Positions 67 to 12,661 of a stretch of 64,000 nt of DNA are shown piece after piece. Location of the stretch: NCBI GenBank assembly GCA_016928975.1, contig JAFGJR010000074.1, forward strand, positions 1-64,000. Direction: 5' to 3'. Every line of letters begins with the position of its first letter. The stretch's first letter is position 1. A program made the translations under genes and the position numbers. The notes beneath the pieces are model-generated. The model was given only the letters and a program-made list of their open reading frames with translations. It was not told where the DNA came from and searched no databases. This DNA is from Sedimentisphaerales bacterium. GTDB lineage: Bacteria; Planctomycetota; Phycisphaerae; Sedimentisphaerales; SG8-4.

Positions 67-235
67 CTACTGAAACGCCTGGCGGCGTCACTACGAACGG
101 GGACGACTCGTGCGAAACAAACCCAATTCGCGGTGATTCAGGTGTCCTGCCGGGTGTCGCCGCGCAGGCGTGACAGGGGGCTGTCGGGGCAGCGAACACC
201 GTCGCACGCTCGATTCCGCTTGCAGCCTTGTCTTG

Positions 236-264
236 TTGCATCGCGGCCAGGGGCCGTGTATCAT
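236..264 (+). promoter_or_regulatory. Sigma-70-type promoter of the kinase gene
   Basis: TTGCAT (236-241), 17 bases, then TATCAT (259-264). This matches the consensus spacing and would start transcription near 271, giving a leader of about 85 nt before the chosen kinase start at 356. Confidence 0.5.
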
Positions 265-355
265 AAACGAGTGCAGAATTCTGCCTCTTCGCGGGGTATC
301 GGTCTGTGAGAAAGGTTGGAAAAGGAGTCCGTATCTCCCGTCACGGGACTTTCGA

Positions 356-2698
356 ATGAGGGATGGCCACGACAATTCGGGGACGCCACCAGACGGAGAA
401 GAGACATTTCCACACTGGAGCGACAGTCTGGAGTCGGATGAGGCACAGGGACCGCTGAGTCCTGGCGCCCAGATCGGCAAATTCCGAGTGGAGGGCCAGT
501 TGGGCCGGGGGGGTATGGGCGTCGTGTACTTGGCCCGCGACACGGAACTTGACCGGTTCGTCGCGCTCAAGTGCCTGCCGCCGGAGGTGAGGCGCAACGA
601 GGCCATGCAATCCCGCCTGCGACGCGAGGCTCGCCTTCTGGCGAAGTTGAACCACCCCAACATCGCGACCCTCTTTCAAGGGCCGGAGGAGGCGGAGGGG
701 ATCATCTACCTGGTCCTGGAGTACATAGCCGGGCAGAACCTGGCGGCACATATTCGCGGGGGCCGACTGAGCCTGGCTGAGGCGCTGTCCATCGCGACAC
801 AGACGGCCACGGCAGTGGCGGCCGCGCACGCACACGGCATCATCCATCGGGACTTGAAGCCCGGCAACATCATGATCACGCCGCTGGGCCATGTGAAGGT
901 GCTCGATTTCGGGTTAGGCAGGGCGATGGACATGGAGACGATGGGCTCCAAGAGCCCACCCACCAGGCCTGGCTGGCCGATGGGGACAGTGGCCTACATG
1001 AGCCCGGAATTGGCGATGGGTAGGCCGGCCGACTATCGAACCGACATCTGGTCGCTGGGAGTGGTCGTCTATGAGATGCTTACCGGCGACCTGCCGTTCG
1101 GTGGCGACTCGGAACCGGCCATACTCCACGCCACGGTGCACGATCCACCCCGTGACATGAGGGAGTGGCGTGAGGCGATTCCCGATGCCCTTGAACAGGC
1201 CGTGCTCAAGATGCTCCGGAAGGAGCCGTCGGGCCGGCATGCGAACATGGACCTCGTGGTCGGCGAGTTGACCTCCCTGTCGCAGAGCGGGGGCGGGCCC
1301 ATCGTCGCCGGCGGCGAGACCGCGTCCATCGCGGTGCTTCCGTTCGTCGATCTGAGCCCGAACCGCGATCAGGAGTATTTCTGCGACGGCATCGCGGAAG
1401 AGCTGATCAACGCTCTGACGCGAATCCCAAACCTGCGGGTGATCGCCCGGACCTCCGCATTCTCCTACAAAGGCAGAAACATCAGTGTCCGCCAGATAGG
1501 AAGAGAGTTGAACGTGAGCACGATTCTGGAGGGCAGCGTGCGGTGGGCGGACGACAGGTTGAGAGTCACGGCCCAGCTCATCGACGTCAAGCACGACTGT
1601 CATCTCTGGTCGGAGCGGTACGACCGCCCTCGGGGCGACATCTTCTGCATTCAGGACGACATCACGTCGGCCATCGTGAATCGACTCAAGCTGACGCTTG
1701 CGGACCAGGAGAAAGCGAGGTCGGTTGGAGGGCGTCCGGCGAATCTCGACGCCTACCATCTTTATCTGCTGGGCTGCTACTTTCGCAGCAAGGGAACGCC
1801 GGGGACCGTGCACAAGGCGTTCGAGTACTTCCAGCAGGCGATCGAGCACGACCCGAACTACGCGCTGCCGTACGTGGGACTGGCCTTGTCCTACAGTCTG
1901 CTCCCGTTCTACAGCCTGTCGCCGCCGATGCAGACGGTTCCGAAAGCCAGGGAGATGGTGGCCAAGGCGCTGCAGATCGACCCGATGCTTCCGGATGCAC
2001 ACGGGGCGCTGGGATTCATCAAGACCTGGTACGAGTGGGACTGGGCCGGCGCCCAGCGAGAGATTCGCCTGGCCATCGAGTTGAATCCGGGGTGTGACCG
2101 GCTCCACCTCTGGTACGCGTACTGCCTCATGCTGCAAGGACGCTGCGAGGAGGCCCGCCGACAGGTGTGCGAGGCCCTCGACATGGACCCGATATCTGTA
2201 CTCCTGAATAGGGAATTAGGACTGATCTCATACTTCGCCGGCGACTACGATCGGGCGGTCGATACGCTGCGGAAGACCCTCGAAATGGACCCGTCCATCA
2301 TGTATGCTCACGCTCATCTCGCGGTTGCCTACATGGGCAAGGGGATGTACGAGGAATCGCTGCGCGAGATTCAGAAAGAGCGCGAGATAGCCCGCGGATC
2401 GCACACGTGGGCGGAGACGCTCGACGGGGTCGTGCGGGCCCAGATGGGACAGCGGCAGGGGGCTCGCGAGGCTCTTGACCGGCTTCTGGAGCGGTCGAGG
2501 CGGGAATATATCTCACCGTTCCATCTGGCTTGCATCTACTTCACTCTGGAGCAGGATGATGAGGGCTTCGAGTGGCTGAGCAGGGCGTACCACGGCCAGG
2601 ACCTGTGGTTGTGTTTCCTCCGGGCCCTTCCCCGGTTTGACTGCATCCGCACGGACGCGAGGTGCATCGAGCTGCTGAGGAAGACGAACTTCGCGTAG
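356..2698 (+). CDS. Serine/threonine protein kinase with TolB-like domain and TPR repeats
   Basis: A cytosolic Hanks-type protein kinase of 780 residues. The glycine loop LGRGGMGVVY is near residue 50, the ATP-anchoring lysine near 72 (VALKC), the catalytic loop HRDLKPGN near 163, DFG near 184 and the activation segment end GTVAYMSPE near 215. From about 322 to 450 there is a TolB/FlgO-like module (SIAVLPFVDLSPN, then LNVSTILEGSVR), followed by TPR repeats to the end. No membrane segment is seen. The in-frame reading extends upstream to 170, but 356 is the first ATG past the likely transcription start; AGGAG lies rather far upstream (322-326). The gene converges with the sigma-companion operon, with only 18 bases between the stops, so the kinase may regulate that sigma factor. 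This regulatory link is inference. Confidence 0.9.
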   Translation: MRDGHDNSGTPPDGEETFPHWSDSLESDEAQGPLSPGAQIGKFRVEGQLGRGGMGVVYLARDTELDRFVALKCLPPEVRRNEAMQSRLRREARLLAKLNHPNIATLFQGPEEAEGIIYLVLEYIAGQNLAAHIRGGRLSLAEALSIATQTATAVAAAHAHGIIHRDLKPGNIMITPLGHVKVLDFGLGRAMDMETMGSKSPPTRPGWPMGTVAYMSPELAMGRPADYRTDIWSLGVVVYEMLTGDLPFGGDSEPAILHATVHDPPRDMREWREAIPDALEQAVLKMLRKEPSGRHANMDLVVGELTSLSQSGGGPIVAGGETASIAVLPFVDLSPNRDQEYFCDGIAEELINALTRIPNLRVIARTSAFSYKGRNISVRQIGRELNVSTILEGSVRWADDRLRVTAQLIDVKHDCHLWSERYDRPRGDIFCIQDDITSAIVNRLKLTLADQEKARSVGGRPANLDAYHLYLLGCYFRSKGTPGTVHKAFEYFQQAIEHDPNYALPYVGLALSYSLLPFYSLSPPMQTVPKAREMVAKALQIDPMLPDAHGALGFIKTWYEWDWAGAQREIRLAIELNPGCDRLHLWYAYCLMLQGRCEEARRQVCEALDMDPISVLLNRELGLISYFAGDYDRAVDTLRKTLEMDPSIMYAHAHLAVAYMGKGMYEESLREIQKEREIARGSHTWAETLDGVVRAQMGQRQGAREALDRLLERSRREYISPFHLACIYFTLEQDDEGFEWLSRAYHGQDLWLCFLRALPRFDCIRTDARCIELLRKTNFA

Positions 2699-2716: not shown

Positions 2717-3226
2717 TCACTGACATGCCTGCTGCGCCTGGCGATAGAGTTCTTTCAGGGTCGGCGCCATCCAGGGCTCGTCGGCAAGCACCTGGAAGGA
2801 CTGGGCCAGATAGGCAGGGGAATGTCGCGTGATCCGTTTGTTGTGAGCGATCAGGGCGCGGGCAATCGCCGCGAAGTAGATCGTCGCGTACACGCGCTGC
2901 ATCTTCTTGTTCGATGCCTTCTCGGCCCACTTCTTGTAGCGATCCTTGATGTCCCGCAGGGTGTCCAGGCTGGTCCGGTCGTCCGACAGGACCGCCTGAA
3001 TCGGCCGGCTCAGGCGGAGACACACCTTGTCCTGTACTTCGTCGATGAGCCCGGACCCGGACTGCACGGGCCGCGACACGGGACACTTCTCCGCGAGCTG
3101 CTCCTGGAGCAACTGCTCGATCGGAACCGCCTCGTCCGCCGAGTCCCGCGTCGGCGCGAGGCAGTCGTCCAGGAACTGGCGGATGTCCTGCGGATCAATC
3201 CCGAACACGGTCCGTTTCTCGGTCAT
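2717..3226 (-). CDS. Sigma-factor companion protein, unknown function (copy 1)
   Basis: A 169-residue, mostly helical soluble protein with no signal peptide. It follows the sigma-factor gene on the same strand after an 81-base gap, so the two are probably co-transcribed. The C-terminal half (VYATIYFAAIARALIAH and the following 40 residues) is clearly related to the protein at 9791-10327 (EVALAVYFAAIAAALVSH), which also follows a sigma factor. I chose the ATG at 3226 because GGGAG precedes it by seven bases; a start further upstream at 3265 has less support. I do not recognise a named family. Candidate roles are an anti-sigma or sigma-regulating factor, based only on the repeated gene pairing. 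Confidence 0.75.
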   Translation of the reverse strand: MTEKRTVFGIDPQDIRQFLDDCLAPTRDSADEAVPIEQLLQEQLAEKCPVSRPVQSGSGLIDEVQDKVCLRLSRPIQAVLSDDRTSLDTLRDIKDRYKKWAEKASNKKMQRVYATIYFAAIARALIAHNKRITRHSPAYLAQSFQVLADEPWMAPTLKELYRQAQQACQ

Positions 3227-3307
3227 GTTGTTGCTCCCAGACTGCACATGCTGCCGACCTGCCATACACTACGTTGCAGAATCGGCGATCTTGCGCGCCG
3301 ACGGGAT

Positions 3308-4042
3308 CTACGCCGGGTGATATTGCTCGAAAATGCTCCGAAGGTCGCCTATCGCCTCCTCGATCTCGTCCTGCGAGCTGCCTGGGCGGGCTATGTGCCG
3401 TGCGAGGACGCGGTGGAAGCGACGTTCGACGGTCACAAGCATGTTCGAGGCCTGCTGTGCCGAGGGGATCGCGTACCTCCTGCAAATCTCCCTTGTCGAG
3501 GACTCCGGCTGGTGGCGCAGGGTTCTCAGGAGTCGCTCCTGGAAGACTCCCCAATGGGATTGCAGGCCATCGCGCAGACACTCCGACTCAAGCTCAGTCA
3601 GCACGGCGTCGAGCACTGTGCAAGCCCACGCGTAATCGAATGCGGCCGCCGGGTCGCATGGCACGGCGGCGGGCACCTCGTACTCGGAGACGTCGGCCTC
3701 CGCCCCGGTGGGAGCCCGCTTCTTTCGCAGCTCGTTGCCGATGTAGTTCTGAAACGACTTGACCAGCAGCGACCGAAATTTCCCCCGCCTTCTGTCCGCT
3801 TTGGAGAGAAACTTCCGTTTCCCCACCAGGATGTCGGTCAGGAAGTCCTCTGTGAAGTCCTTCGCGTCTTCGTGGACGAAGCCTTTTCGCCTGGCGTAGC
3901 AGTACAAGGGATCCCAGTACTGCTTGTACAATTCCTCTCGCACGGCTTCCCGCTGGTCTGCATCCTCGATGTGCGTCCAGCGCGTTGAGGGGAAGGCAGG
4001 TCGTCGTCCAAACGCACTGTCCCGATTCCGAGCTCTGGACAC
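3308..4042 (-). CDS. ECF-like RNA polymerase sigma factor (copy 1)
   Basis: A 244-residue sigma-70-family protein of the planctomycete ECF-like type. The region-2-like part includes STRWTHIEDA near residue 20, then YCYARRKGFVHEDAKDFTED and the GKFRSLLVKSFQNYIGNELR helix. The region-4-like part contains REICRRYAIPSAQQASNMLV and ERRFHRVLARHI, consistent with a helix-turn-helix for -35 recognition. The GTG at 4042 is preferred because GGAGGTG lies eight bases upstream (4057-4051). A longer reading from GTG 4084 has no such site. It heads a two-gene operon with the companion at 2717-3226 and faces the kinase gene. Paralogous to the product of 8946-9716. Confidence 0.85.
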   Translation of the reverse strand: MSRARNRDSAFGRRPAFPSTRWTHIEDADQREAVREELYKQYWDPLYCYARRKGFVHEDAKDFTEDFLTDILVGKRKFLSKADRRRGKFRSLLVKSFQNYIGNELRKKRAPTGAEADVSEYEVPAAVPCDPAAAFDYAWACTVLDAVLTELESECLRDGLQSHWGVFQERLLRTLRHQPESSTREICRRYAIPSAQQASNMLVTVERRFHRVLARHIARPGSSQDEIEEAIGDLRSIFEQYHPA

Positions 4043-4087
4043 GGCTTTTTCACCTCCGACGGTCCAGGCTCCCACCTGCGACACGTC

Positions 4088-4430
4088 ATGATGGGAACCT
4101 CAATCACGTGCCTCTCCAGCGTATCGCCGACGACTCCTCCGCGTCAAGGCCGCCCCGCATGTGGGACATCTCCGCTCGCGGGACAAGACCAGCAGGACGA
4201 GCGTCAGAGCCTGGCATATCGCCGGCAACTTCTTCTTCGGCGTCGGCAGGCCGATTGGCTGGCTGGCCGTCGATCCCATGAGCGGAGCGATGTGGGCCCT
4301 GGACAAGGACTGCGGTGCACGACTCGCCCCCGGCGCCGCCTCGTTCACATCGGATACCAGCAGCTTGAAGGTGGTCTGCGTGAACAGCGTGCCAGATTAC
4401 CTTAGACCACACCTGTGCTGGGTGGACTGA
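4088..4430 (+). pseudogene. Likely frameshifted small envelope protein
   Basis: In one frame, 4161-4430 encodes HIAGNFFFGVGRPIGWLAVD followed by PMSGAMWALDKD. This resembles the C-terminal signature (GN..FGG.IG...D..TGAM..L) of small PEGA-like lipoproteins as I recall them. The upstream half that should precede it (a cysteine and a GTSPL-type turn) appears in another frame starting at 4088. One indel around 4160-4175 would join them. The call is tentative: the shorter 4161 frame could be a real gene of 89 residues, or the resemblance may be chance. It overlaps the 5' flank of the sigma gene on the other strand. Confidence 0.35.
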
Positions 4431-4475
4431 ACGCAGCAATCGAATGCACGGCACGAGGGAAGGAACGATATAGCA

Positions 4476-4530
4476 ACTCAAGGGGCGAAACGCCACCTGC
4501 TAACCCCAGGTCGTCGTTCGCCCCTTGAGT
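4476..4530. terminator. Long inverted repeat downstream of the HU-like gene
   Basis: The arms ACTCAAGGGGCGAA (4476-4489) and TTCGCCCCTTGAGT (4517-4530) pair perfectly over 14 bases around a 27-base loop. It lies about 100 bases beyond the HU-like stop on the minus strand and 45 bases past the small-protein remnant on the plus strand, so it could end transcription from both sides. There is no clear T-run, so simple intrinsic termination is uncertain. Confidence 0.45.
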
Positions 4531-4627
4531 CTATTGGCAATCGGGGAGCAATGCCTCCCTGGTGAAAGACAAGCCCACGTTCCGAGCCACAGAGGCGGGC
4601 CCATCCAGACAATCTACGCGTCACCGA

Positions 4628-4939
4628 TCAGACCATGTCCTTGAGGCTCTTCATCGCGCGAATCTTCACGATGTTTCGCGCCGGCTTTGCCTTGAACATG
4701 GTTTCCTCGCCGGTAAAGGGATTGATGCCCTTGCGAGCTTTGGTGGCAGGCTTGCGCACCACAACCAGCTTCATCAAACCTGGTACGGTGTAGGATCCGG
4801 AGCCGTTGCGGCCGAGGCTCTTCTGAATCTGTCCGGCCATCGCCTCGAACACGGAACCCACCTGCTTCTTCGACAGCCCGGTCGTCGCGGCGATCCCCGA
4901 CAGGATCTCACTCTTGGTCATTGGCTTCTTCTCTGCCAT
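4628..4939 (-). CDS. HU/IHF-family DNA-binding protein
   Basis: A 103-residue histone-like protein, close to the usual HU length of 90-100. It binds and bends DNA as a dimer and helps compact the nucleoid. It starts MAEKKPMTKSEILSGIAATT, has the helix GLSKKQVGSVFEAM, and a basic arm region with KARKGINPFTGEETMFKAKP. In that region the usual GRNP.TG core is replaced by GINPFTG. The end is lysine-rich (RAMKSLKDMV). An AAGGAGG ribosome site nine bases before ATG 4939 fixes the start. A strong promoter lies upstream (5055-5027). It is monocistronic. Confidence 0.93.
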   Translation of the reverse strand: MAEKKPMTKSEILSGIAATTGLSKKQVGSVFEAMAGQIQKSLGRNGSGSYTVPGLMKLVVVRKPATKARKGINPFTGEETMFKAKPARNIVKIRAMKSLKDMV

Positions 4940-5026
4940 AACTCATGGCCTCCTTACACTAAGGACAACAGAAAACTATCCATACACGCCACGAAATCCA
5001 CTCGTGCAACGCGGACATCCACAACA

Positions 5027-5055
5027 TCCATACGTGCTCTTGGGGTGTCTGTCAA
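5027..5055 (-). promoter_or_regulatory. Sigma-70-type promoter of the HU-like gene
   Basis: Read on the minus strand: TTGACA (5055-5050), 17 bases, TATGGA (5032-5027). A perfect -35 box and ideal spacing predict a start near 5020 and a leader of about 80 nt before the HU-like ATG. Confidence 0.6.
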
Positions 5056-5232
5056 GCAAGAATACGTCACAGAATCCGTGAAATCATGCGATTCTTCAAG
5101 GGATTCCTGGCAGAGACGGCTGCCGTGAGGGACTTGTGGCGGTCCCCGCGGGGTCTTATCATGGGCGACAGACCGGAAGAACCAGCGTGGTTCACCCGCT
5201 CGTGATGTCACCTTTTGTGTGAGAGAGGAAAC

Positions 5233-8200
5233 ATGGTTGAGAAGCGCCACACAGGGAGGATCGAGGATCGATCTGGAGCCGGCATCATCCTATGTCTTCT
5301 GCTTCTTTCGGCAGCGGGCGGCCTTGACGCCGCATCGAACGAAAGGTATGTGCCTTGCACGCGCGTGGCGATCCGCGAGAGCCGGTGGTTCCTCAATGAG
5401 CAGGTGACGTATCGAGGCACCAGGGCCGAGGGATTGCTGATGAACGTGCGAATGGTCAACTCGGTCTTCGAGGACCGAGGCCGTCCTGACTTCGATCCGA
5501 ACGCCAACACGGAGGAGTTCCTCGCGCAGATTCCAGACTACGTGGCGCACGGCGTCCGCGCCTTCACGATCTGTCTGCAAGGCGGCATGCCCGGCTACGA
5601 AGGCGCCGTCAATTCCGCGTTCAATGCGGACGGCTCCTTGCGCAACTCATATCTGCGGCGTGTGCGCCGGGTCATCGAGGCCTGTGACCGCCACGGAGCG
5701 GCGGTGATCCTCGGCTGTTACTACCAGCGCCAGGACCAGGTCCTTGCGGACGAGGCCGCCGTGCGTGCCGGCGTCGTCCATGTCGCGACATGGATCACAG
5801 AGAGCGGTTTCACGAATGTCGTTCTGGAGATCGCCAACGAGTTCGAACACGGCGGCTTCGACCATCTCGCGTTGAAGACGGGCGAGGGCATCGCCGAGCT
5901 GATCGGCCTGGCGAAGCGGACCTCGCCGTCGCTGCTGGTTTCCGCCAGCGGGCTGGGTCATGGGCGGTCGTCCGACAGCGTCGCCCGGGCGAGCGACTTT
6001 CTGCTGATCCACTTCAACGGCACGCGACTGGAAGAGATCCCGGATCACATTGCGGCGTTGAGGAAGTTTCGCAAGCCGATCGTGTGCAACGAGGACCAGA
6101 AGATCGGCGAGCAGGGCGCGAAGGCCGCCGAGCTGTGCGTGGCCAACGGAGCGTCGTGGGGCTTCATGCACGTCGAGGTGAATCAGCACTTTCCCTTCAC
6201 GTTCCAGGGGGCCGTGGACGATCCGCAGGTGTATGCGGCCATCCGGCGAGTCACGTCAGCCGCCGCTCTTGGCGACACGAGGCTCCGGCTGATCATCGAG
6301 ACCGACGCCGGCGGCGATCCGGACGACGAGCAATCGCTTGTGCGATTCCTCCTGTACGCGAACGAATGGGACGTCGAAGGGATCATCGCGAATCGCCCGG
6401 CGACCCGGCGACCGGAGAACAGCAATCCCGAGGATACCGGCCTGGGTATCGTGTGCCGGCTGCTCGATGCATACGGCGGGTGTTGGCCGAGCCTTGTGCG
6501 ACACGATCCCCGCTACCCCACGAAGGAGTCCCTCCGGCGGCGCACCGTCGCCGGCTACAACGATATGAATGACGCGGTGAACCTGATCGTGGCGGCGGTC
6601 GACAAGGACGATCCTCGCCCGCTCTGGTATTCGGACTGGGGCACGGACAACGGGGCGGCCGTGAACAACCTGAAGCGGGCTCTGGACCTCGTGTATCGCC
6701 AACGCGGGCCGCAAGGCTACGCGCGATTCAAGTCGAAGATTCGACTGGCCTCCTACGACAAGTTCGGCGATCACACGACCACCATCGCGCCGCCGTTTGC
6801 GATCTGGGTGAACACGTTCCAGCCGCCCATGGAGGGCAAACGCTGGTATCACCGGTTCTCCGCCCTCACGTCCCAGGCCGGGGGCTTCGATCTCAAGCGC
6901 GACGTGCTCACGGATCACGGCCCACTCGGTGCCCTGTACCCGACGAATACGACTCACTGGGCCAAAGAAGGCGACACGATGACGTTCCTCTACCTGGTGC
7001 CGACGGGCATGAACGATCCCAACGAGCCGTCCTGGGGCAGTTGGGCCGGTCGCTATGGGCTGAACGAGAGCTTCCCTGCGATGCGGCACCACTGGGCCAA
7101 TCAGACCGATACGCGGAACGGCGCGGCGAGCCGGGACAATACGCTCGCCCGCTGGGCGGCGGATTTGCAGAACGACTTTCGCGCGAGGCTCGACTGGTGC
7201 GTGAAGTCCGTGAAAGAGGCGAATCACCCGCCCCGCGCGGTCGTGAACGGTGTGGAAGGCAAGGCGATTCTGCATCTGGCCGCACAGCCGGGTCAGATGG
7301 TGTCGCTCGATGCCGGTCTCTCGCAGGATCCCGACGGCGACGCGCTCCGCTACGGGTGGTTCGTCTACCGCGAGGCCGGGACATACCCGGGCGAAGTCAC
7401 CTTGACGAGTGCATCGCCATCTGTGGCGCTGCTGAACGTTCCCGGTGACGCGGCGGGCAAGACCATCCACATCATTCTGACCGTGCATGACGATGGAAGC
7501 CCGCCGCTTACGGCGTACCGCCGGGCGGTTGTGCACGTCTCCGCGACCGACTACTTCCCTCCGCCGGAGTCGCAGGGCGGCTGGCGCAAGCTCGACGAGC
7601 CGGCGGAGATTCGCCGGATTGGCGGCATGGACGCCGCGAAGCTGGACGAATTGAAGGACTGGCTGTTGCAGAGTGACGATCGAGGCTTCGCGGCGGTGGT
7701 GATCCGTCGGGGCTACATCGTGCTCGAAGTCGAGCGAGGCAACAGCGCCAAGACAGACGCCCGCCGCGTGGCGTCGGTCTCCAAGGCGGTCTGTGCGACG
7801 GTGCTGGCGATCGCCTCCGAGCGAAGCCGGCAGGGATTGACGCCTCGGCGGATGAAGTTCGACGACCTCGCGTTCGATTTCATTCCGTGGGCCCAGCCAC
7901 TGAGCGACCCGCGCAAAGCACAGATCACCGTCAAGCAACTGCTCAATCACACGTCCGGCCTGTGCCCGGAGGCGACCGGGGCGTCCAACGAAGGCGCGTG
8001 GGAGTACATCCTCGGTCACAGCGGCGACCCGCGGACCGCCAGGCTCGCGTTCGATCCCGGCGCCGGCTGCGGCTATTCCACGCACGCCCTTCACCATGCC
8101 TCGCTGGTGTGCGAGACGGTGACGGGCAAGTCGTACGACCAGTTCGCCATCGAGGCGCTCTTCAAGCCGCTTGGCATCGAGCACTGGTGGTTCCAGTACT

Positions 8201-8679
8201 TCGACGGCGGCGAGGGGATCGGCCGCCATCCCACGCACGGGCTGGGTATGCCGGCGCGCGACCTCGCGCGGATCGCCTATTGCATGCTCCACGGCGGCCG
8301 GTGGGCCGACCGGCAGGTGATCCCGAAATGGTTCGTCGAGGAAACCGCCGCACCTACACACAATGTCCGAACTCCGGAGATGCGCTGGCATCTCAATCCG
8401 CAAATCTTCTCGCACGCCTGGGAGCTGCCCGCGCGTCTGACCGGCGAGGGCGGTCGCACCGGACTCGGCATTCCCTCCGACGCACGCGACAAGCCCGGCT
8501 CGGGCGGTCAGCTCATCGCCTTCGTGCCCAGCCTCGACTTAGTCGTCACGCGCCAGACCGGCAGCAGCGGCGACTGGCAATACGAAGAATACCTGCGCCG
8601 CGCCTGCGCAGCCGTGATGCCAGGCGCAGCAGGGTCTCATTCCCGGACACAAAGGTCACCGGTCGTCTCGAAGCGTTGA
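5233..8679 (+). CDS. Secreted three-part fusion: GH-like barrel, DUF1593 (Sde0182-like), serine beta-lactamase-like hydrolase
   Basis: A 1148-residue exported protein with three normally separate modules. A signal peptide (IILCLLLLSAAGGLDA) precedes a TIM-barrel glycosidase-like region, residues about 40-345, with NVVLEIANEFEHGG typical of a catalytic Glu strand. Next is a nucleoside-hydrolase-like DUF1593 module, about 351-660 (LRLIIETDAGGDPDDEQSL), with its usual beta-sandwich tail at 666-775 (SLDAGLSQDPDGDALRYGWF). The C-terminal part, about 785-1125, is a class C beta-lactamase/transpeptidase-like fold. Its SVSK motif is near residue 847, but YST replaces the usual YxN near 947. I use ATG 5233 because GAGAGG precedes it; an upstream TTG at 5215 is weaker. 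The natural substrate is unknown; carbohydrate or ester hydrolysis outside the cytoplasm is likely. The gene stands alone. Confidence 0.85.
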   Translation: MVEKRHTGRIEDRSGAGIILCLLLLSAAGGLDAASNERYVPCTRVAIRESRWFLNEQVTYRGTRAEGLLMNVRMVNSVFEDRGRPDFDPNANTEEFLAQIPDYVAHGVRAFTICLQGGMPGYEGAVNSAFNADGSLRNSYLRRVRRVIEACDRHGAAVILGCYYQRQDQVLADEAAVRAGVVHVATWITESGFTNVVLEIANEFEHGGFDHLALKTGEGIAELIGLAKRTSPSLLVSASGLGHGRSSDSVARASDFLLIHFNGTRLEEIPDHIAALRKFRKPIVCNEDQKIGEQGAKAAELCVANGASWGFMHVEVNQHFPFTFQGAVDDPQVYAAIRRVTSAAALGDTRLRLIIETDAGGDPDDEQSLVRFLLYANEWDVEGIIANRPATRRPENSNPEDTGLGIVCRLLDAYGGCWPSLVRHDPRYPTKESLRRRTVAGYNDMNDAVNLIVAAVDKDDPRPLWYSDWGTDNGAAVNNLKRALDLVYRQRGPQGYARFKSKIRLASYDKFGDHTTTIAPPFAIWVNTFQPPMEGKRWYHRFSALTSQAGGFDLKRDVLTDHGPLGALYPTNTTHWAKEGDTMTFLYLVPTGMNDPNEPSWGSWAGRYGLNESFPAMRHHWANQTDTRNGAASRDNTLARWAADLQNDFRARLDWCVKSVKEANHPPRAVVNGVEGKAILHLAAQPGQMVSLDAGLSQDPDGDALRYGWFVYREAGTYPGEVTLTSASPSVALLNVPGDAAGKTIHIILTVHDDGSPPLTAYRRAVVHVSATDYFPPPESQGGWRKLDEPAEIRRIGGMDAAKLDELKDWLLQSDDRGFAAVVIRRGYIVLEVERGNSAKTDARRVASVSKAVCATVLAIASERSRQGLTPRRMKFDDLAFDFIPWAQPLSDPRKAQITVKQLLNHTSGLCPEATGASNEGAWEYILGHSGDPRTARLAFDPGAGCGYSTHALHHASLVCETVTGKSYDQFAIEALFKPLGIEHWWFQYFDGGEGIGRHPTHGLGMPARDLARIAYCMLHGGRWADRQVIPKWFVEETAAPTHNVRTPEMRWHLNPQIFSHAWELPARLTGEGGRTGLGIPSDARDKPGSGGQLIAFVPSLDLVVTRQTGSSGDWQYEEYLRRACAAVMPGAAGSHSRTQRSPVVSKR

Positions 8680-8885
8680 CCGTTGCTCAGCGTGCCGCGC
8701 GCACGCTCCTGGGCAGGTACGGTCTGCACGGGAACCTGTGGGCTTCTGCGCGCGGACGCGCGAGCGGGGGACTCGCCAGCCTGCAACGTGCTCGCATCGG
8801 ACGGCGTGGCGGCCCTCCACTACTCTATTCGCAGAAGGGGTCGCATGTCTGCGCGGCCGGTGGATTTCCTGGCGGGAGCCGGCTA

Positions 8886-8914
8886 TTGCGGGCACCGGTT
8901 TCAAATGCTACAAT
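8886..8914 (+). promoter_or_regulatory. Sigma-70-type promoter of the second sigma-factor operon
   Basis: TTGCGG (8886-8891), 17 bases, TACAAT (8909-8914). The -10 box is nearly consensus. The predicted start near 8921 leaves a short leader before ATG 8946. Confidence 0.6.
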
Positions 8915-8945
8915 CGAAGCTGCCGAAAGACGGTAGGTTCCCTTC

Positions 8946-9716
8946 ATGAAGCATGCGGACAGGACAAGCATAGGGGGCGCGAAGAGCGGCTTTGCGACGA
9001 CCCATTGGTCGATCATCCAGGCGGCCAAGACCGACGATTTGACGCGACGACACGTGGTCATTGGCAACCTCACGACCACCTACTGGAAGCCGGTCTACTG
9101 CTACCTCAAGAGGCGAGGGTACGACAACGAGCAGGCCAAGGACCTGACACAGGACTTCTTCTGCGAGATCGTGCTCGGGCGCGGACTGGTGAGCAAGGCC
9201 GACCGCGAAAAGGGCCGGTTCCGGACGTTCCTGCTCACCGCCCTCGAACGGTACGCGGTCAGCAGGATCCGTCGCGACACGAGGCGAAAGGCGGCGCCCA
9301 AGGGAGGGCTGGTCGCCCTGGACTTCGAGGACCTGGCAAACCTGCCGACCCCGCACGCCTCCGGCACGGCGGAAGAGGCCTTCCATTTCCGCTGGGCGGC
9401 CGACCTGCTCGAACAGGTCCTGGCAGAAGTCAAAGAGGAGTACTGCGGCACGGATCGTGCTGCATACTGGGAGGTGTTCCGCCTGAAGATCCTGGTCCCG
9501 ATCCTCGAAGATGTCGAGGGTCCGCCGTTGGCGGAGCTTTGCGCGAGGTTTGGGATCGACAACGAATCCCGGGCGGCCAATATCATCGTCACCGTCAAGC
9601 GCCGATTCCGGGCGGTTCTCCGGCGTCACTTGCGGGACCTGGTGGGATCGGATTCCGAGGTGGACGACGAGTTGAACGAGATTTTCAGAATTCTGTCTGG
9701 ACCTCGCGCAGGATGA
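8946..9716 (+). CDS. ECF-like RNA polymerase sigma factor (copy 2)
   Basis: A 256-residue sigma-70-family protein paralogous to the one at 3308-4042. The shared order is TTHWSIIQAA near residue 18, YCYLKRRGYDNEQAKDLTQD near 52-71, a KADREKGRFRTFLLTALER segment, then ELCARFGIDNESRAANIIV and a VKRRFRAVLRRHL helix as region 4. It should direct RNA polymerase to a dedicated promoter set; no matching target motif could be identified from the sequence alone. A near-consensus housekeeping promoter lies just upstream. The companion gene follows after 74 bases, the same arrangement as in copy 1. Confidence 0.87.
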   Translation: MKHADRTSIGGAKSGFATTHWSIIQAAKTDDLTRRHVVIGNLTTTYWKPVYCYLKRRGYDNEQAKDLTQDFFCEIVLGRGLVSKADREKGRFRTFLLTALERYAVSRIRRDTRRKAAPKGGLVALDFEDLANLPTPHASGTAEEAFHFRWAADLLEQVLAEVKEEYCGTDRAAYWEVFRLKILVPILEDVEGPPLAELCARFGIDNESRAANIIVTVKRRFRAVLRRHLRDLVGSDSEVDDELNEIFRILSGPRAG

Positions 9717-9790
9717 CGATGCATCCGGCGAATCACAGGCAGGAGAGTGGTGCGCGGTGCACCCGACATTGCTATTGATAGGTACATTCG

Positions 9791-10327
9791 ATGGACAAAG
9801 AATCGAAGGGACACCACTTACGGCCGGAGAAACTGGCGCGATTGTGGGATATCGGATCGGATGTCCATATCGAGGCGGCGGACAGTGCCGGCGCCGGCGA
9901 GGAGCGCTATGCCGAGCTGCTCCATGACTGGCTGGCGCGACAGTTGCCCCCCGACCCCGTCCAGACACAGGACCTCGTGTCTCTGCTGCCCGAGGCGCTG
10001 GGGCAAATCTGCCAGGAGGTTCGGCCGTTCTCGGGGGATTCGATCGGCTTCCTGCTTACCCATGCGGATACGGACGTCCAGGTGCTCAGGCGGATCAAGG
10101 ATTACGCCAAGGAATTGGGCGCCCCGCCGGCTGGCGAGGTCGAACGGGAGGTGGCCCTGGCCGTCTATTTCGCCGCGATTGCCGCCGCGCTGGTGTCTCA
10201 CGAGACCCGAATCTCTCAGCACGGTGACGCGAGACTCCGCAGCGCTTTTGAAGCTCTGAGCGAGCGGAACGCCGTCCCATCGGAGCTTCGATCGCTATTC
10301 CGCAAGGCCTGTCGTCGATCTCCGTGA
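9791..10327 (+). CDS. Sigma-factor companion protein, unknown function (copy 2)
   Basis: A 178-residue soluble, largely helical protein. Its C-terminal half (EVALAVYFAAIAAALVSH, later LRSLFRKAC) matches the same part of the 2717-3226 product (VYATIYFAAIARALIAH, later LKELYRQAQ). The N-terminal half differs more, with acidic stretches. No signal peptide, metal-binding cysteines or membrane helix are seen, so it is not a typical ZAS anti-sigma factor. Its position right after a sigma gene, repeated in the other module, suggests it works with that sigma factor. Function is inference only. Confidence 0.75.
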   Translation: MDKESKGHHLRPEKLARLWDIGSDVHIEAADSAGAGEERYAELLHDWLARQLPPDPVQTQDLVSLLPEALGQICQEVRPFSGDSIGFLLTHADTDVQVLRRIKDYAKELGAPPAGEVEREVALAVYFAAIAAALVSHETRISQHGDARLRSAFEALSERNAVPSELRSLFRKACRRSP

Positions 10328-10609: not shown

Positions 10610-12661
10610 ATGTGTCCCATGCTCAGGTTCGCTCATCCGCATGTTCGTCCCTGGCGACAAGCCCTTATCGTGAGTGTTGCCGCTCTGATCTACGCCTGCG
10701 GCAGCGTCACTGCTCATCCCATGGCCTCCGCAGACGCCCGGCGAGTCGTACAAGGTTGGCTGAGCACCAGTGGAGAGGCCCTCGGTGTCAGAATGGGCAA
10801 AGACGTCGTGAGGGTGGACAGCTACGCCGGGCAGGACGGCGCCGTGCTCTACCACGTCGTCTCCCTGAAGCCGGGCGGGTTCGTGATCACCTCCGCAGAC
10901 GACGAGATCGAGCCCATCATCGCCTTCGCCGATGACGGGACGTGTGAGTTCTCCGAGAACAACCCGTTGTTCGTGCTTGTGACGCGGGACATGCAGGCCC
11001 GCATGGAGGGCGTTGCAGTCTCGGCCGGCAGCAGGGTCTTCGCGGCCCGGGCGGCGGAAGGCCCCGGCGGCGGCGCCAAATCCAAATGGCATCTTCTGAT
11101 GGGTCAGACAGATGTGCGTCTGTACTCGGCGGCGGCAGAAGTCGCCCAGTTCGTTCCCAACGACGTGCGCGTGCCGCCGTTGCTGGCGAGCCGCTGGAAT
11201 CAGTCGACCGAGCACGGATACTCCTGTTACAACTACTTCACCCCGCAATTGCAGAACGGCAAGCTCGTCTTCCAGTCGGGCGCGGTGGATAATTGCCCCT
11301 GCGGTTGTGTCGCGACGGCCCTTGCTCAGTTGATGTACTACTGGCGCTACCCGGAGCGATCGCCCAGGCAGTCCGAGTACACGATCTTGGTCGCCGCCGG
11401 CGAGGACAGGCCGGACTACGAGTGGCCCGTCCTTCTGCGCGGCGGCGATTCCGAAGGTGGGCCGTACGACTGGGACAAGATGCCCGCCATCCCTGCCCAG
11501 GACGCGACGGACGAGCAGCGGCAGGCCATCGGGGCGCTGTGTGCGGACGCCGGCGCCGCCGTCCACATGAGCTATGGCTCCGATGGGTCGGGGACCACCA
11601 TGGACAGCATCGCCCCCGCCCTTCGCGATACGTTCCACTACCGCAACGCCGTGTTCGGGATCGACCGGCACGATTCGCTCGTCTATGATCTGTCGTCGGA
11701 GCTGGAGTCCATGGCAAACCCGAATCTCGACGCCGGTTGTCCGGTCCTCCTGTGCCTGCTGTCGGCTACTCGCGGGCACGCCATCATCACCGATGGGTAC
11801 GGCTACAATTTCTCCTCCCTGTACTACCACTTGAACATGGGCTGGAGCGGCGTGGATGACGCCTGGTACAACATGCCCCACGTCAGCACTTACACGGTGG
11901 TTGGGGCCTGTATCTACAACGTCTTTCCCCTGGCCGGCGGCGAGATCATCAGTGGGCGAGTCGCCGATTCACAGGGCCGTCCAGTCGGCGATGTCACGGT
12001 GGTCCTGACCGAGGGGGCTGCCGAGCGAGTCACCACGACGAACGAGGCGGGCGTCTACGCGTTCGTCGCTGTGACGTCCGAAGGCCGCTGTCAAGTCTCC
12101 GTGAGCCAGGAGGGCTGCGCGTTCACGCCGGCTGAGCGCGCGGTGACCACAGGTCGGTCGATGGACGCGAGCCCGCTGTGCGGGAACGTCTGGGCCGTGG
12201 ACTTCACGCTGGCGGGTCCAGGGGACGAGAGCGACTCCGGCCGCGAAGACGACGGCAATACCGAGACCTTTGAAGGGGACCGGACTGCGGGCCAATTCGA
12301 CTGGATCACCGACTGGGTCATCAGCGACGCCGCGTGGACCTCTCCACACCACAGCATCAAGAGCAAGCCCATCGGCCATGGCGCATCATCGTCGTTGGCC
12401 ATCAGCCTGGACTGTCGGGAGGGCGAGATCTCCTTCTATCTCAAAGTCTCGTCCGAGGGCAACTGTGACTTCCTGACGTTCCGCATCGACGGCCGGCTAC
12501 TGAGGAGCTGGTCCGGCCAGGAGGACTGGCAGTATGTCTCGTTCCCTGTGACGGGCGGCCGGCACAGCTTTCAGTGGCAGTATTCCAAGGACTACTCGGT
12601 CGCCAAACGAGACGACTGTGCCTGGCTGGACGACATCACCTTCCCGATCTCACGACCGTAG
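10610..12661 (+). CDS. Secreted C10-family (streptopain-like) cysteine peptidase
   Basis: A 683-residue exported protease. The signal peptide ends near SVTAHPMA. The prodomain follows (ADARRVVQGWLS; VSLKPGGFVITSADDEIEPI). The papain-like catalytic domain has the nucleophile in GCVATALAQLMYYW (Cys233) and the general base in RGHAIITDGYG (His390), with the typical LNMGWSG segment after it. A carboxypeptidase-regulatory-like beta-sandwich (SGRVADSQGRPVGDVTVVLT) occupies about 445-530. A lectin-like C-terminal domain with LDCREGEISFYLKVSSEGNC completes it. No PEP-CTERM or other sorting tail is seen. AGAGGTG precedes ATG 10610. The next gene downstream also encodes a likely secreted protein with peptidase-like features. 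Confidence 0.88.
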   Translation: MCPMLRFAHPHVRPWRQALIVSVAALIYACGSVTAHPMASADARRVVQGWLSTSGEALGVRMGKDVVRVDSYAGQDGAVLYHVVSLKPGGFVITSADDEIEPIIAFADDGTCEFSENNPLFVLVTRDMQARMEGVAVSAGSRVFAARAAEGPGGGAKSKWHLLMGQTDVRLYSAAAEVAQFVPNDVRVPPLLASRWNQSTEHGYSCYNYFTPQLQNGKLVFQSGAVDNCPCGCVATALAQLMYYWRYPERSPRQSEYTILVAAGEDRPDYEWPVLLRGGDSEGGPYDWDKMPAIPAQDATDEQRQAIGALCADAGAAVHMSYGSDGSGTTMDSIAPALRDTFHYRNAVFGIDRHDSLVYDLSSELESMANPNLDAGCPVLLCLLSATRGHAIITDGYGYNFSSLYYHLNMGWSGVDDAWYNMPHVSTYTVVGACIYNVFPLAGGEIISGRVADSQGRPVGDVTVVLTEGAAERVTTTNEAGVYAFVAVTSEGRCQVSVSQEGCAFTPAERAVTTGRSMDASPLCGNVWAVDFTLAGPGDESDSGREDDGNTETFEGDRTAGQFDWITDWVISDAAWTSPHHSIKSKPIGHGASSSLAISLDCREGEISFYLKVSSEGNCDFLTFRIDGRLLRSWSGQEDWQYVSFPVTGGRHSFQWQYSKDYSVAKRDDCAWLDDITFPISRP

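What the first reader, a model, noticed from the sequence alone, without database searches (positions are those of the whole stretch)
2717..10327. Two paralogous sigma-factor/companion modules, one facing a protein kinase
Sigma factors at 4042-3308 and 8946-9716 are paralogs, each followed in the same operon by a small helical protein (169 and 178 residues) that shares the VYFAAIA-type C-terminal half with its counterpart. The gap sizes match too (81 and 74 bases). The companions lack metal-binding cysteines and membrane helices, so they are not standard anti-sigma factors. A kinase-TolB-TPR gene converges on module 1. Together they could be a phosphorylation-controlled sigma switch with an undescribed partner family.
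Basis: partly seen in the sequence, partly recalled or inferred. Interest (0 to 1): 0.75.

Follow-up and report, generated by a model that had tools for sequence, protein, structure and literature searches.

The report
Sigma-factor partner protein, kinase-linked
Two gene switches in this DNA each pair a transcription (sigma) factor with a small, so far unnamed partner protein; related planctomycete bacteria keep such pairs side by side, usually next to a protein kinase and sometimes fused into one protein, which points to a kinase-linked switch with an extra, undescribed part.

Summary
Two paralogous ECF sigma genes (3308-4042 -, 8946-9716 +) are each followed by a homologous small helical protein without a meaningful Pfam, NCBIfam or PDB sequence match. 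A companion-only profile, blind to sigma genes, gave 48 strong companions; 47 have this sigma type directly upstream. Partners diverge together: within-genome shuffles never reached the observed tree correlation (0 of 2000). In six genomes of one order sigma and companion share a single open frame. A Ser/Thr kinase gene abuts the companion in 35 of the 47 sigma-linked modules, 27 on the same strand and 8 convergent as in the window. In six genomes, 27 of 40 fetched sigma genes of this family lack a companion but have a kinase directly downstream: the companion is an extra part between a sigma factor and its kinase. Kinase-linked ECF sigma factors are known; I found no description of this third component, but the primary classification papers were not held. 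Most likely it is a soluble sigma-binding regulator, probably inhibitory. Contact, sign and phosphorylation are inferred; a predicted joined pair was not confident (pTM 0.47).

The parts
170..2698 (+). Ser/Thr kinase with TPR repeats, convergent with module 1
   Evidence: Pkinase E 3.6e-52, TPR; catalytic motifs
2717..3226 (-). Companion 1 (169 aa)
   Evidence: Homologous to companion 2; 154.7 bits to the family profile
2828..2830 (-). Codon of Thr133 in the companion 1 K-R-I-T loop, candidate phosphosite (position read off the sequence)
   Evidence: Matching column is Ser/Thr in 47 of 47 strong rows
3308..4042 (-). ECF sigma factor 1 (alternative start GTG 4084)
   Evidence: TIGR02937 E 7.2e-08, below its cut-off; paralog of sigma 2
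8946..9716 (+). ECF sigma factor 2
   Evidence: Sigma70_r2 E 6.9e-07, above its cut-off
8964..8966 (+). Codon of Thr7 of sigma 2 in the N-terminal T-x-[MI]-G-G motif, candidate phosphosite
   Evidence: Thr in 47 of 51 companion-bearing and 18 of 27 kinase-only rows
9147..9149 (+). Codon of Thr68 of sigma 2, region 2.2 A-K-D-L-T-Q, candidate phosphosite
   Evidence: Thr in 39 of 51 companion-bearing and 23 of 27 kinase-only rows
9791..10327 (+). Companion 2 (178 aa)
   Evidence: 177.9 bits to the family profile; all-helical model
10214..10216 (+). Codon of Ser142 in the companion 2 R-I-S loop, candidate phosphosite
   Evidence: Ser/Thr in 47 of 47 strong rows

Best explanation
Each module encodes an ECF sigma factor of a kinase-linked planctomycete family and a small cytoplasmic protein that binds it. 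I propose that the companion is a soluble sigma regulator, most likely one that holds the sigma factor inactive (works like an anti-sigma factor), and that a Ser/Thr kinase, encoded beside companion 1, phosphorylates the companion and/or the sigma factor and so lets the sigma factor reach RNA polymerase. Candidate phospho-acceptors are the invariant Ser/Thr of the companion [KR]-I-[ST] loop (Ser142 in companion 2, Thr133 in companion 1) and Thr7 and Thr68 of sigma 2. Shown by sequence: close linkage, co-divergence, natural fusion, recurrent kinase adjacency. Inferred: binding, inhibition, phosphorylation.
For: Sigma directly upstream of 47 of 48 strong companions found by a companion-only search. 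Six genomes with sigma and companion in one open frame (two of the six followed by a kinase). Sigma and companion distances correlate at 0.617, and 0 of 2000 within-genome shuffles reach it. Kinase next to the companion in 35 of 47 sigma-linked modules against 8-45 kinases per 5.1-6.8 Mb genome. Sigma genes of the same family without companion: 27 of 29 have a kinase directly downstream. Position 142 Ser/Thr in 47 of 47 strong rows.
Against: The predicted joined pair is not confident (pTM 0.47). Eleven of 47 sigma-linked strong modules, module 2 among them, have no kinase next to them. Distant relatives of the companion stand away from sigma genes. Kinase-only sigmas show that kinase control does not need the companion. 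No datum fixes the sign (inhibitor or activator). Ser/Thr at 142 may cap a helix instead of being phosphorylated.
Confidence: 0.5

Rival explanations
1. The companion is a positive factor: it bridges sigma and kinase, or stabilises sigma on RNA polymerase, so that sigma is active only with it.
For: It lies between sigma and kinase genes in 27 of 47 sigma-linked strong modules; fusion to sigma in six genomes fits a constant partner as well as an inhibitor.
Against: Kinase-only sigma genes of the same family do without it (27 of 40 loci). Otherwise the present data do not separate it from the inhibitor reading.
Confidence: 0.25
2. The companion is not a sigma regulator but a separate effector (for example a DNA- or protein-binding protein) that is merely co-transcribed with sigma.
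For: Some distant relatives stand away from sigma genes: four tandem copies in L115, single ones in L117 and L119, and ~250-aa proteins in L124, L125, L128, L129, L130.
Against: Six natural fusions to sigma; co-divergence with the neighbouring sigma beyond within-genome shuffles; 47 of 48 strong companions linked.
Confidence: 0.1

Closest known systems
Kinase-linked ECF groups with planctomycete members (ECF59, ECF61, ECF62, ECF217; from passages of PMC8999054)
   Same: ECF sigma gene beside a Ser/Thr kinase gene, predicted phosphorylation control
   Different: Those groups are described as sigma plus kinase; here a third gene lies between or is fused to sigma. Which group these sigmas belong to was not testable here.
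ECF43: EcfP-PknT and EcfK-PknS (passages of PMC8999054, PMC13147305)
   Same: Sigma factor under a Hanks-type kinase
   Different: ECF43 lacks the acidic DAED motif and has a phosphorylated Thr there; here the Asp is kept (x-A-K-D) and a companion is present
EcfG-NepR-PhyR partner switch (passages of PMC8999054)
   Same: Small soluble partner of an ECF sigma factor
   Different: Signal there is a histidine kinase and a sigma-mimicking response regulator; here a Ser/Thr kinase and no response regulator seen
ECF sigma factors with C-terminal regulatory extensions (such as ECF41, ECF42, ECF57; PMC8999054, passages)
   Same: Six relatives carry the companion domain C-terminal to the sigma domains in one open frame
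   Different: In the window and in the 47 strong linked loci it is a separate protein; relation to the ECF57 extension not tested

Membership tests
Kinase-linked ECF sigma system | Sigma is of the sigma-70/ECF family | tested here: met
   Sigma 2 Sigma70_r2 29.4 bits, above the 24-bit cut-off; sigma 1 reaches only TIGR02937 at 32.2 bits, below its cut-off, but is 33% identical to sigma 2
Kinase-linked ECF sigma system | Ser/Thr kinase gene next to the sigma module | tested here: met
   Module 1: kinase 18 nt away, convergent. Module 2: none. Family: 35 of 47 strong sigma-linked modules; 27 of 40 sigma loci kinase-only
Kinase-linked ECF sigma system | Assignment to a published ECF group by its model | not testable with these tools
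   The group models and the classification paper are not held
ECF43 | Acidic DAED motif of region 2.2 replaced by uncharged residues with a phospho-Thr | tested here: not met
   Asp kept in 50 of 51 companion-bearing rows, with Lys before it in 47 of 51
Anti-sigma factor (works-like question) | Known anti-sigma domain in Pfam or NCBIfam | tested here: not met
   No such match for either companion or for the 42 members of A4 in Pfam
Anti-sigma factor (works-like question) | Fold of a known anti-sigma domain | tested here: inconclusive
   Fold comparison of the companion model
Anti-sigma factor (works-like question) | Binds and inhibits the cognate sigma factor | not testable with these tools
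   Needs experiment; the joined-pair model was not confident
ECF with C-terminal regulatory extension | Extension in the same polypeptide as sigma | tested here: not met
   Separate genes in the window; met only in six relatives

The most novel reading that the evidence does not exclude
The companion is a new class of sigma-regulatory domain, found both detached and fused to sigma, that forms a three-part sigma-partner-kinase switch in Planctomycetota. A neighbouring sigma clade lacks the domain and relies on the kinase alone, which makes a natural with/without comparison of how kinases control transcription.
Probability: 0.5. Interest if true: 0.75.

Novelty: new variant of a known kind. Interest (0 to 1): 0.6.

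Why it matters
How Ser/Thr kinases control ECF sigma factors outside ECF43 is open: the review read in part here says that other kinase-linked groups keep acidic residues in region 2.2 and may work differently (PMC8999054). A conserved, sometimes fused partner between sigma and kinase is a concrete candidate for the missing step. It comes with defined residues to test and with close relatives that have or lack it, often in one genome.

Tried and rejected

Exceptions to linkage, 14 of 81 hits: L093 (N-terminal part missing, a TGA inside the match, kinase still convergent), L115 (four tandem copies), L117, L119, L124, L125, L128, L129, L130, a 35-bit hit in L135 that may be spurious, and L156 (first part replaced by another reading frame, kinase adjacent; contig join or recombination not resolved).

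Rows left out: 8 of the 48 sigma hits were not fetched (all in G007; fragments, broken copies, or simply not chosen). L039 (a 38-aa match) was not followed. L134 and L160 were left out of the paired set. The with/without-companion comparison used 51 companion rows after dropping 15 distant loci, and 27 kinase-only rows. The sigma tree is a quick tree: the fork that holds the 19 kinase-only rows has support 87, not starred. Its companion rows came from companion searches and its kinase-only rows from five of the six genomes, so gain or loss is not settled.

Papers: Casas-Pastor 2021, Jogler 2012 and Wiegand 2020 are not held, so an earlier mention of this neighbour in their text or supplements cannot be excluded. 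The listings of searches (no paper) showed no description of the companion. PMC8195603 (passages) describes other ECF neighbourhoods, not this one.

Full report
What is there. Two sigma/companion pairs lie on opposite strands, pointing away from each other, with 4.9 kb between the sigma starts. Both sigma genes are diverged ECF sigma factors, 33% identical. The companions are homologous over 134 columns. They match no Pfam or NCBIfam family at a meaningful level (best E 0.24 and 0.029) and no PDB sequence was found for companion 2. The 42 members of a wide alignment add only one weak Pfam match (E 0.007), and its profile only weak PDB matches (E 0.15 or worse). Homologs found are named 'hypothetical protein' or not at all. 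The companion model is all helical with a disordered start (pLDDT 81, pTM 0.74).

Linkage. A profile of 55 companions was used to scan genome contigs: 15 loci, all titled as planctomycete MAGs; 14 of 15 have the sigma gene directly upstream. Genome searches found companions in 10 of 10 source genomes, 24 of 392 sampled phylum genomes (at most 8 candidates scored per genome) and 26 of 161 genomes of one order. From these I fetched 74 longer loci. Together with the window they hold 81 companion hits; 67 have the sigma upstream on the same strand. Among the 48 hits of 140 bits or more it is 47. The companion was the only search key, so the linkage is not made by the search.

Fusion. One phylum hit, L060, is a single 468-residue open frame with sigma and companion. 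A search of 170 genomes of that order with this protein gave more. Six genomes (G115, G589, G678, G590, G587, G626) carry both profiles in one open frame of 428-519 aa, with sigma scores of 160-235 bits and companion scores of 62-118 bits. G589 and G678 are only 51% and 40% identical to G115, so this is not one sequencing error. In G589 and G626 a kinase follows; two others end soon at a contig edge. All six keep Ser or Thr at the position of companion Ser142, judged by eye on the translations. Of the 30 loci fetched, the other 25 hold a sigma without a companion, 19 of them with a kinase frame on the same strand inside the 1.5-kb flank. Fusion of two otherwise separate neighbours is a usual sign of physical or functional partnership; that step is inference.

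Co-divergence. For the 47 strong pairs, sigma and companion tree distances correlate at 0.617. Shuffling companions only within the 12 genomes that have several modules (which keeps the species signal) gives a mean of 0.344 and a maximum of 0.564, 0 of 2000 as high. Nearest neighbours agree in 20 of 47, so the trees are similar, not identical. Modules travel as pairs; co-inheritance of neighbours alone could give this too.

Kinase. Of 47 sigma-linked strong companions, 27 are followed by a co-directional kinase domain within 700 nt and 8 (window module 1 included) meet a convergent kinase within 350 nt; 11 have none (window module 2 included) and 1 ends at a contig edge (a 28th co-directional case, L156, has no sigma). 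Six whole genomes have 8-45 kinases in 5.1-6.8 Mb, so by my estimate fewer than one such case is expected by chance. Of the kinases scanned, three of four convergent ones carry WD40 repeats and one a lectin-like part; of three co-directional ones two show no further domain and one a hydrolase. The window's kinase carries TPRs.

The sigma family is itself kinase-linked. In six genomes, 40 of 48 sigma hits were fetched. Of these, 11 have a companion (10 separate, 1 fused; 8 of the 11 with a kinase next), 27 have no companion but a kinase directly downstream on the same strand, and 2 have neither. On a tree of 95 sigma rows, companion versus kinase-only needs two changes; 19 kinase-only rows lie in one fork (support 87, not starred) among companion-bearing rows, and 8 in a distant clade. 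So the companion is an added or lost module of one kinase-linked sigma family; the direction is not settled.

Residues. Sigma rows with and without companion share an N-terminal T-x-[MI]-G-G motif (Thr7 of sigma 2: 47 of 51 and 18 of 27) and A-K-D-L-T-Q in region 2.2 (Thr68: 39 of 51 and 23 of 27) (numbers here follow the sigma 2 protein, three less than in that output). In strong companions Tyr126, Ala131, Leu149 and Ala173 are in 47 of 47 rows, and position 142 is Ser or Thr in 47 of 47, after Lys/Arg in 42 and Ile in 42; in the 17 weaker rows 142 is Ser/Thr in 15 and Cys in 2. These are candidate phosphosites only; 142 could instead cap a helix.

Mechanism. The most economical reading is a kinase-controlled sigma factor with a soluble sigma-binding regulator. 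I favour inhibition because known soluble partners of ECF sigma factors such as NepR inhibit (PMC8999054, passages), but no datum here decides between inhibitor and adaptor. The kinase-only sigmas show that kinase control can do without it, so the companion tunes or gates. Module 2, without a kinase nearby, may answer to a kinase elsewhere; that is speculation.

Comparison. Kinase-linked ECF groups with planctomycete members are known (ECF59, 61, 62, 217) and direct phosphorylation is shown for ECF43 (PMC8999054: passages and part 1 of section 8; PMC8103513 and PMC13147305: passages). The ECF43 signature is not met here. The unusual conserved neighbours named in the part of PMC8999054 section 8 that I read include nothing like the companion. 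The primary classification papers could not be read.

Noticed in passing
window 5215-8679 (+): A 1154-aa protein between the two modules joins a Sde182-type nucleoside-hydrolase-like part, its C-terminal domain and a beta-lactamase-family domain.
   Followed up: no
window 4628-4939 (-): An HU/IHF-type DNA-binding protein gene (PF00216, E 3.7e-17) lies just upstream of sigma 1 on the same strand.
   Followed up: no
window 10610-12661 (+): A C10-family cysteine peptidase with a Spi-type inhibitor domain follows module 2.
   Followed up: no
L124, L125, L128, L129, L130: Roughly 250-aa relatives of the companion domain (shared EYN[WY]CA[LI]ER block, then L-K-[DE]-Y-G-K) that do not sit next to this sigma type.
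   Followed up: partly
L115:6070-9008 (+): Four companion-domain hits in tandem (three or four separate genes) without a sigma gene of this type nearby.
   Followed up: partly
L233:1-1230 (-): Downstream of a fused sigma-companion gene lies a protein with an FHA / YscD-like cytoplasmic domain; FHA domains often bind phosphothreonine (recalled).
   Followed up: no
L093:6031-6366 (+): A decaying companion: N-terminal part and sigma gene missing, a TGA inside the match, convergent kinase still present.
   Followed up: partly
L002:3718-6954 (-): Where a convergent kinase stands in other loci, this module faces a subtilase-family protein instead.
   Followed up: no
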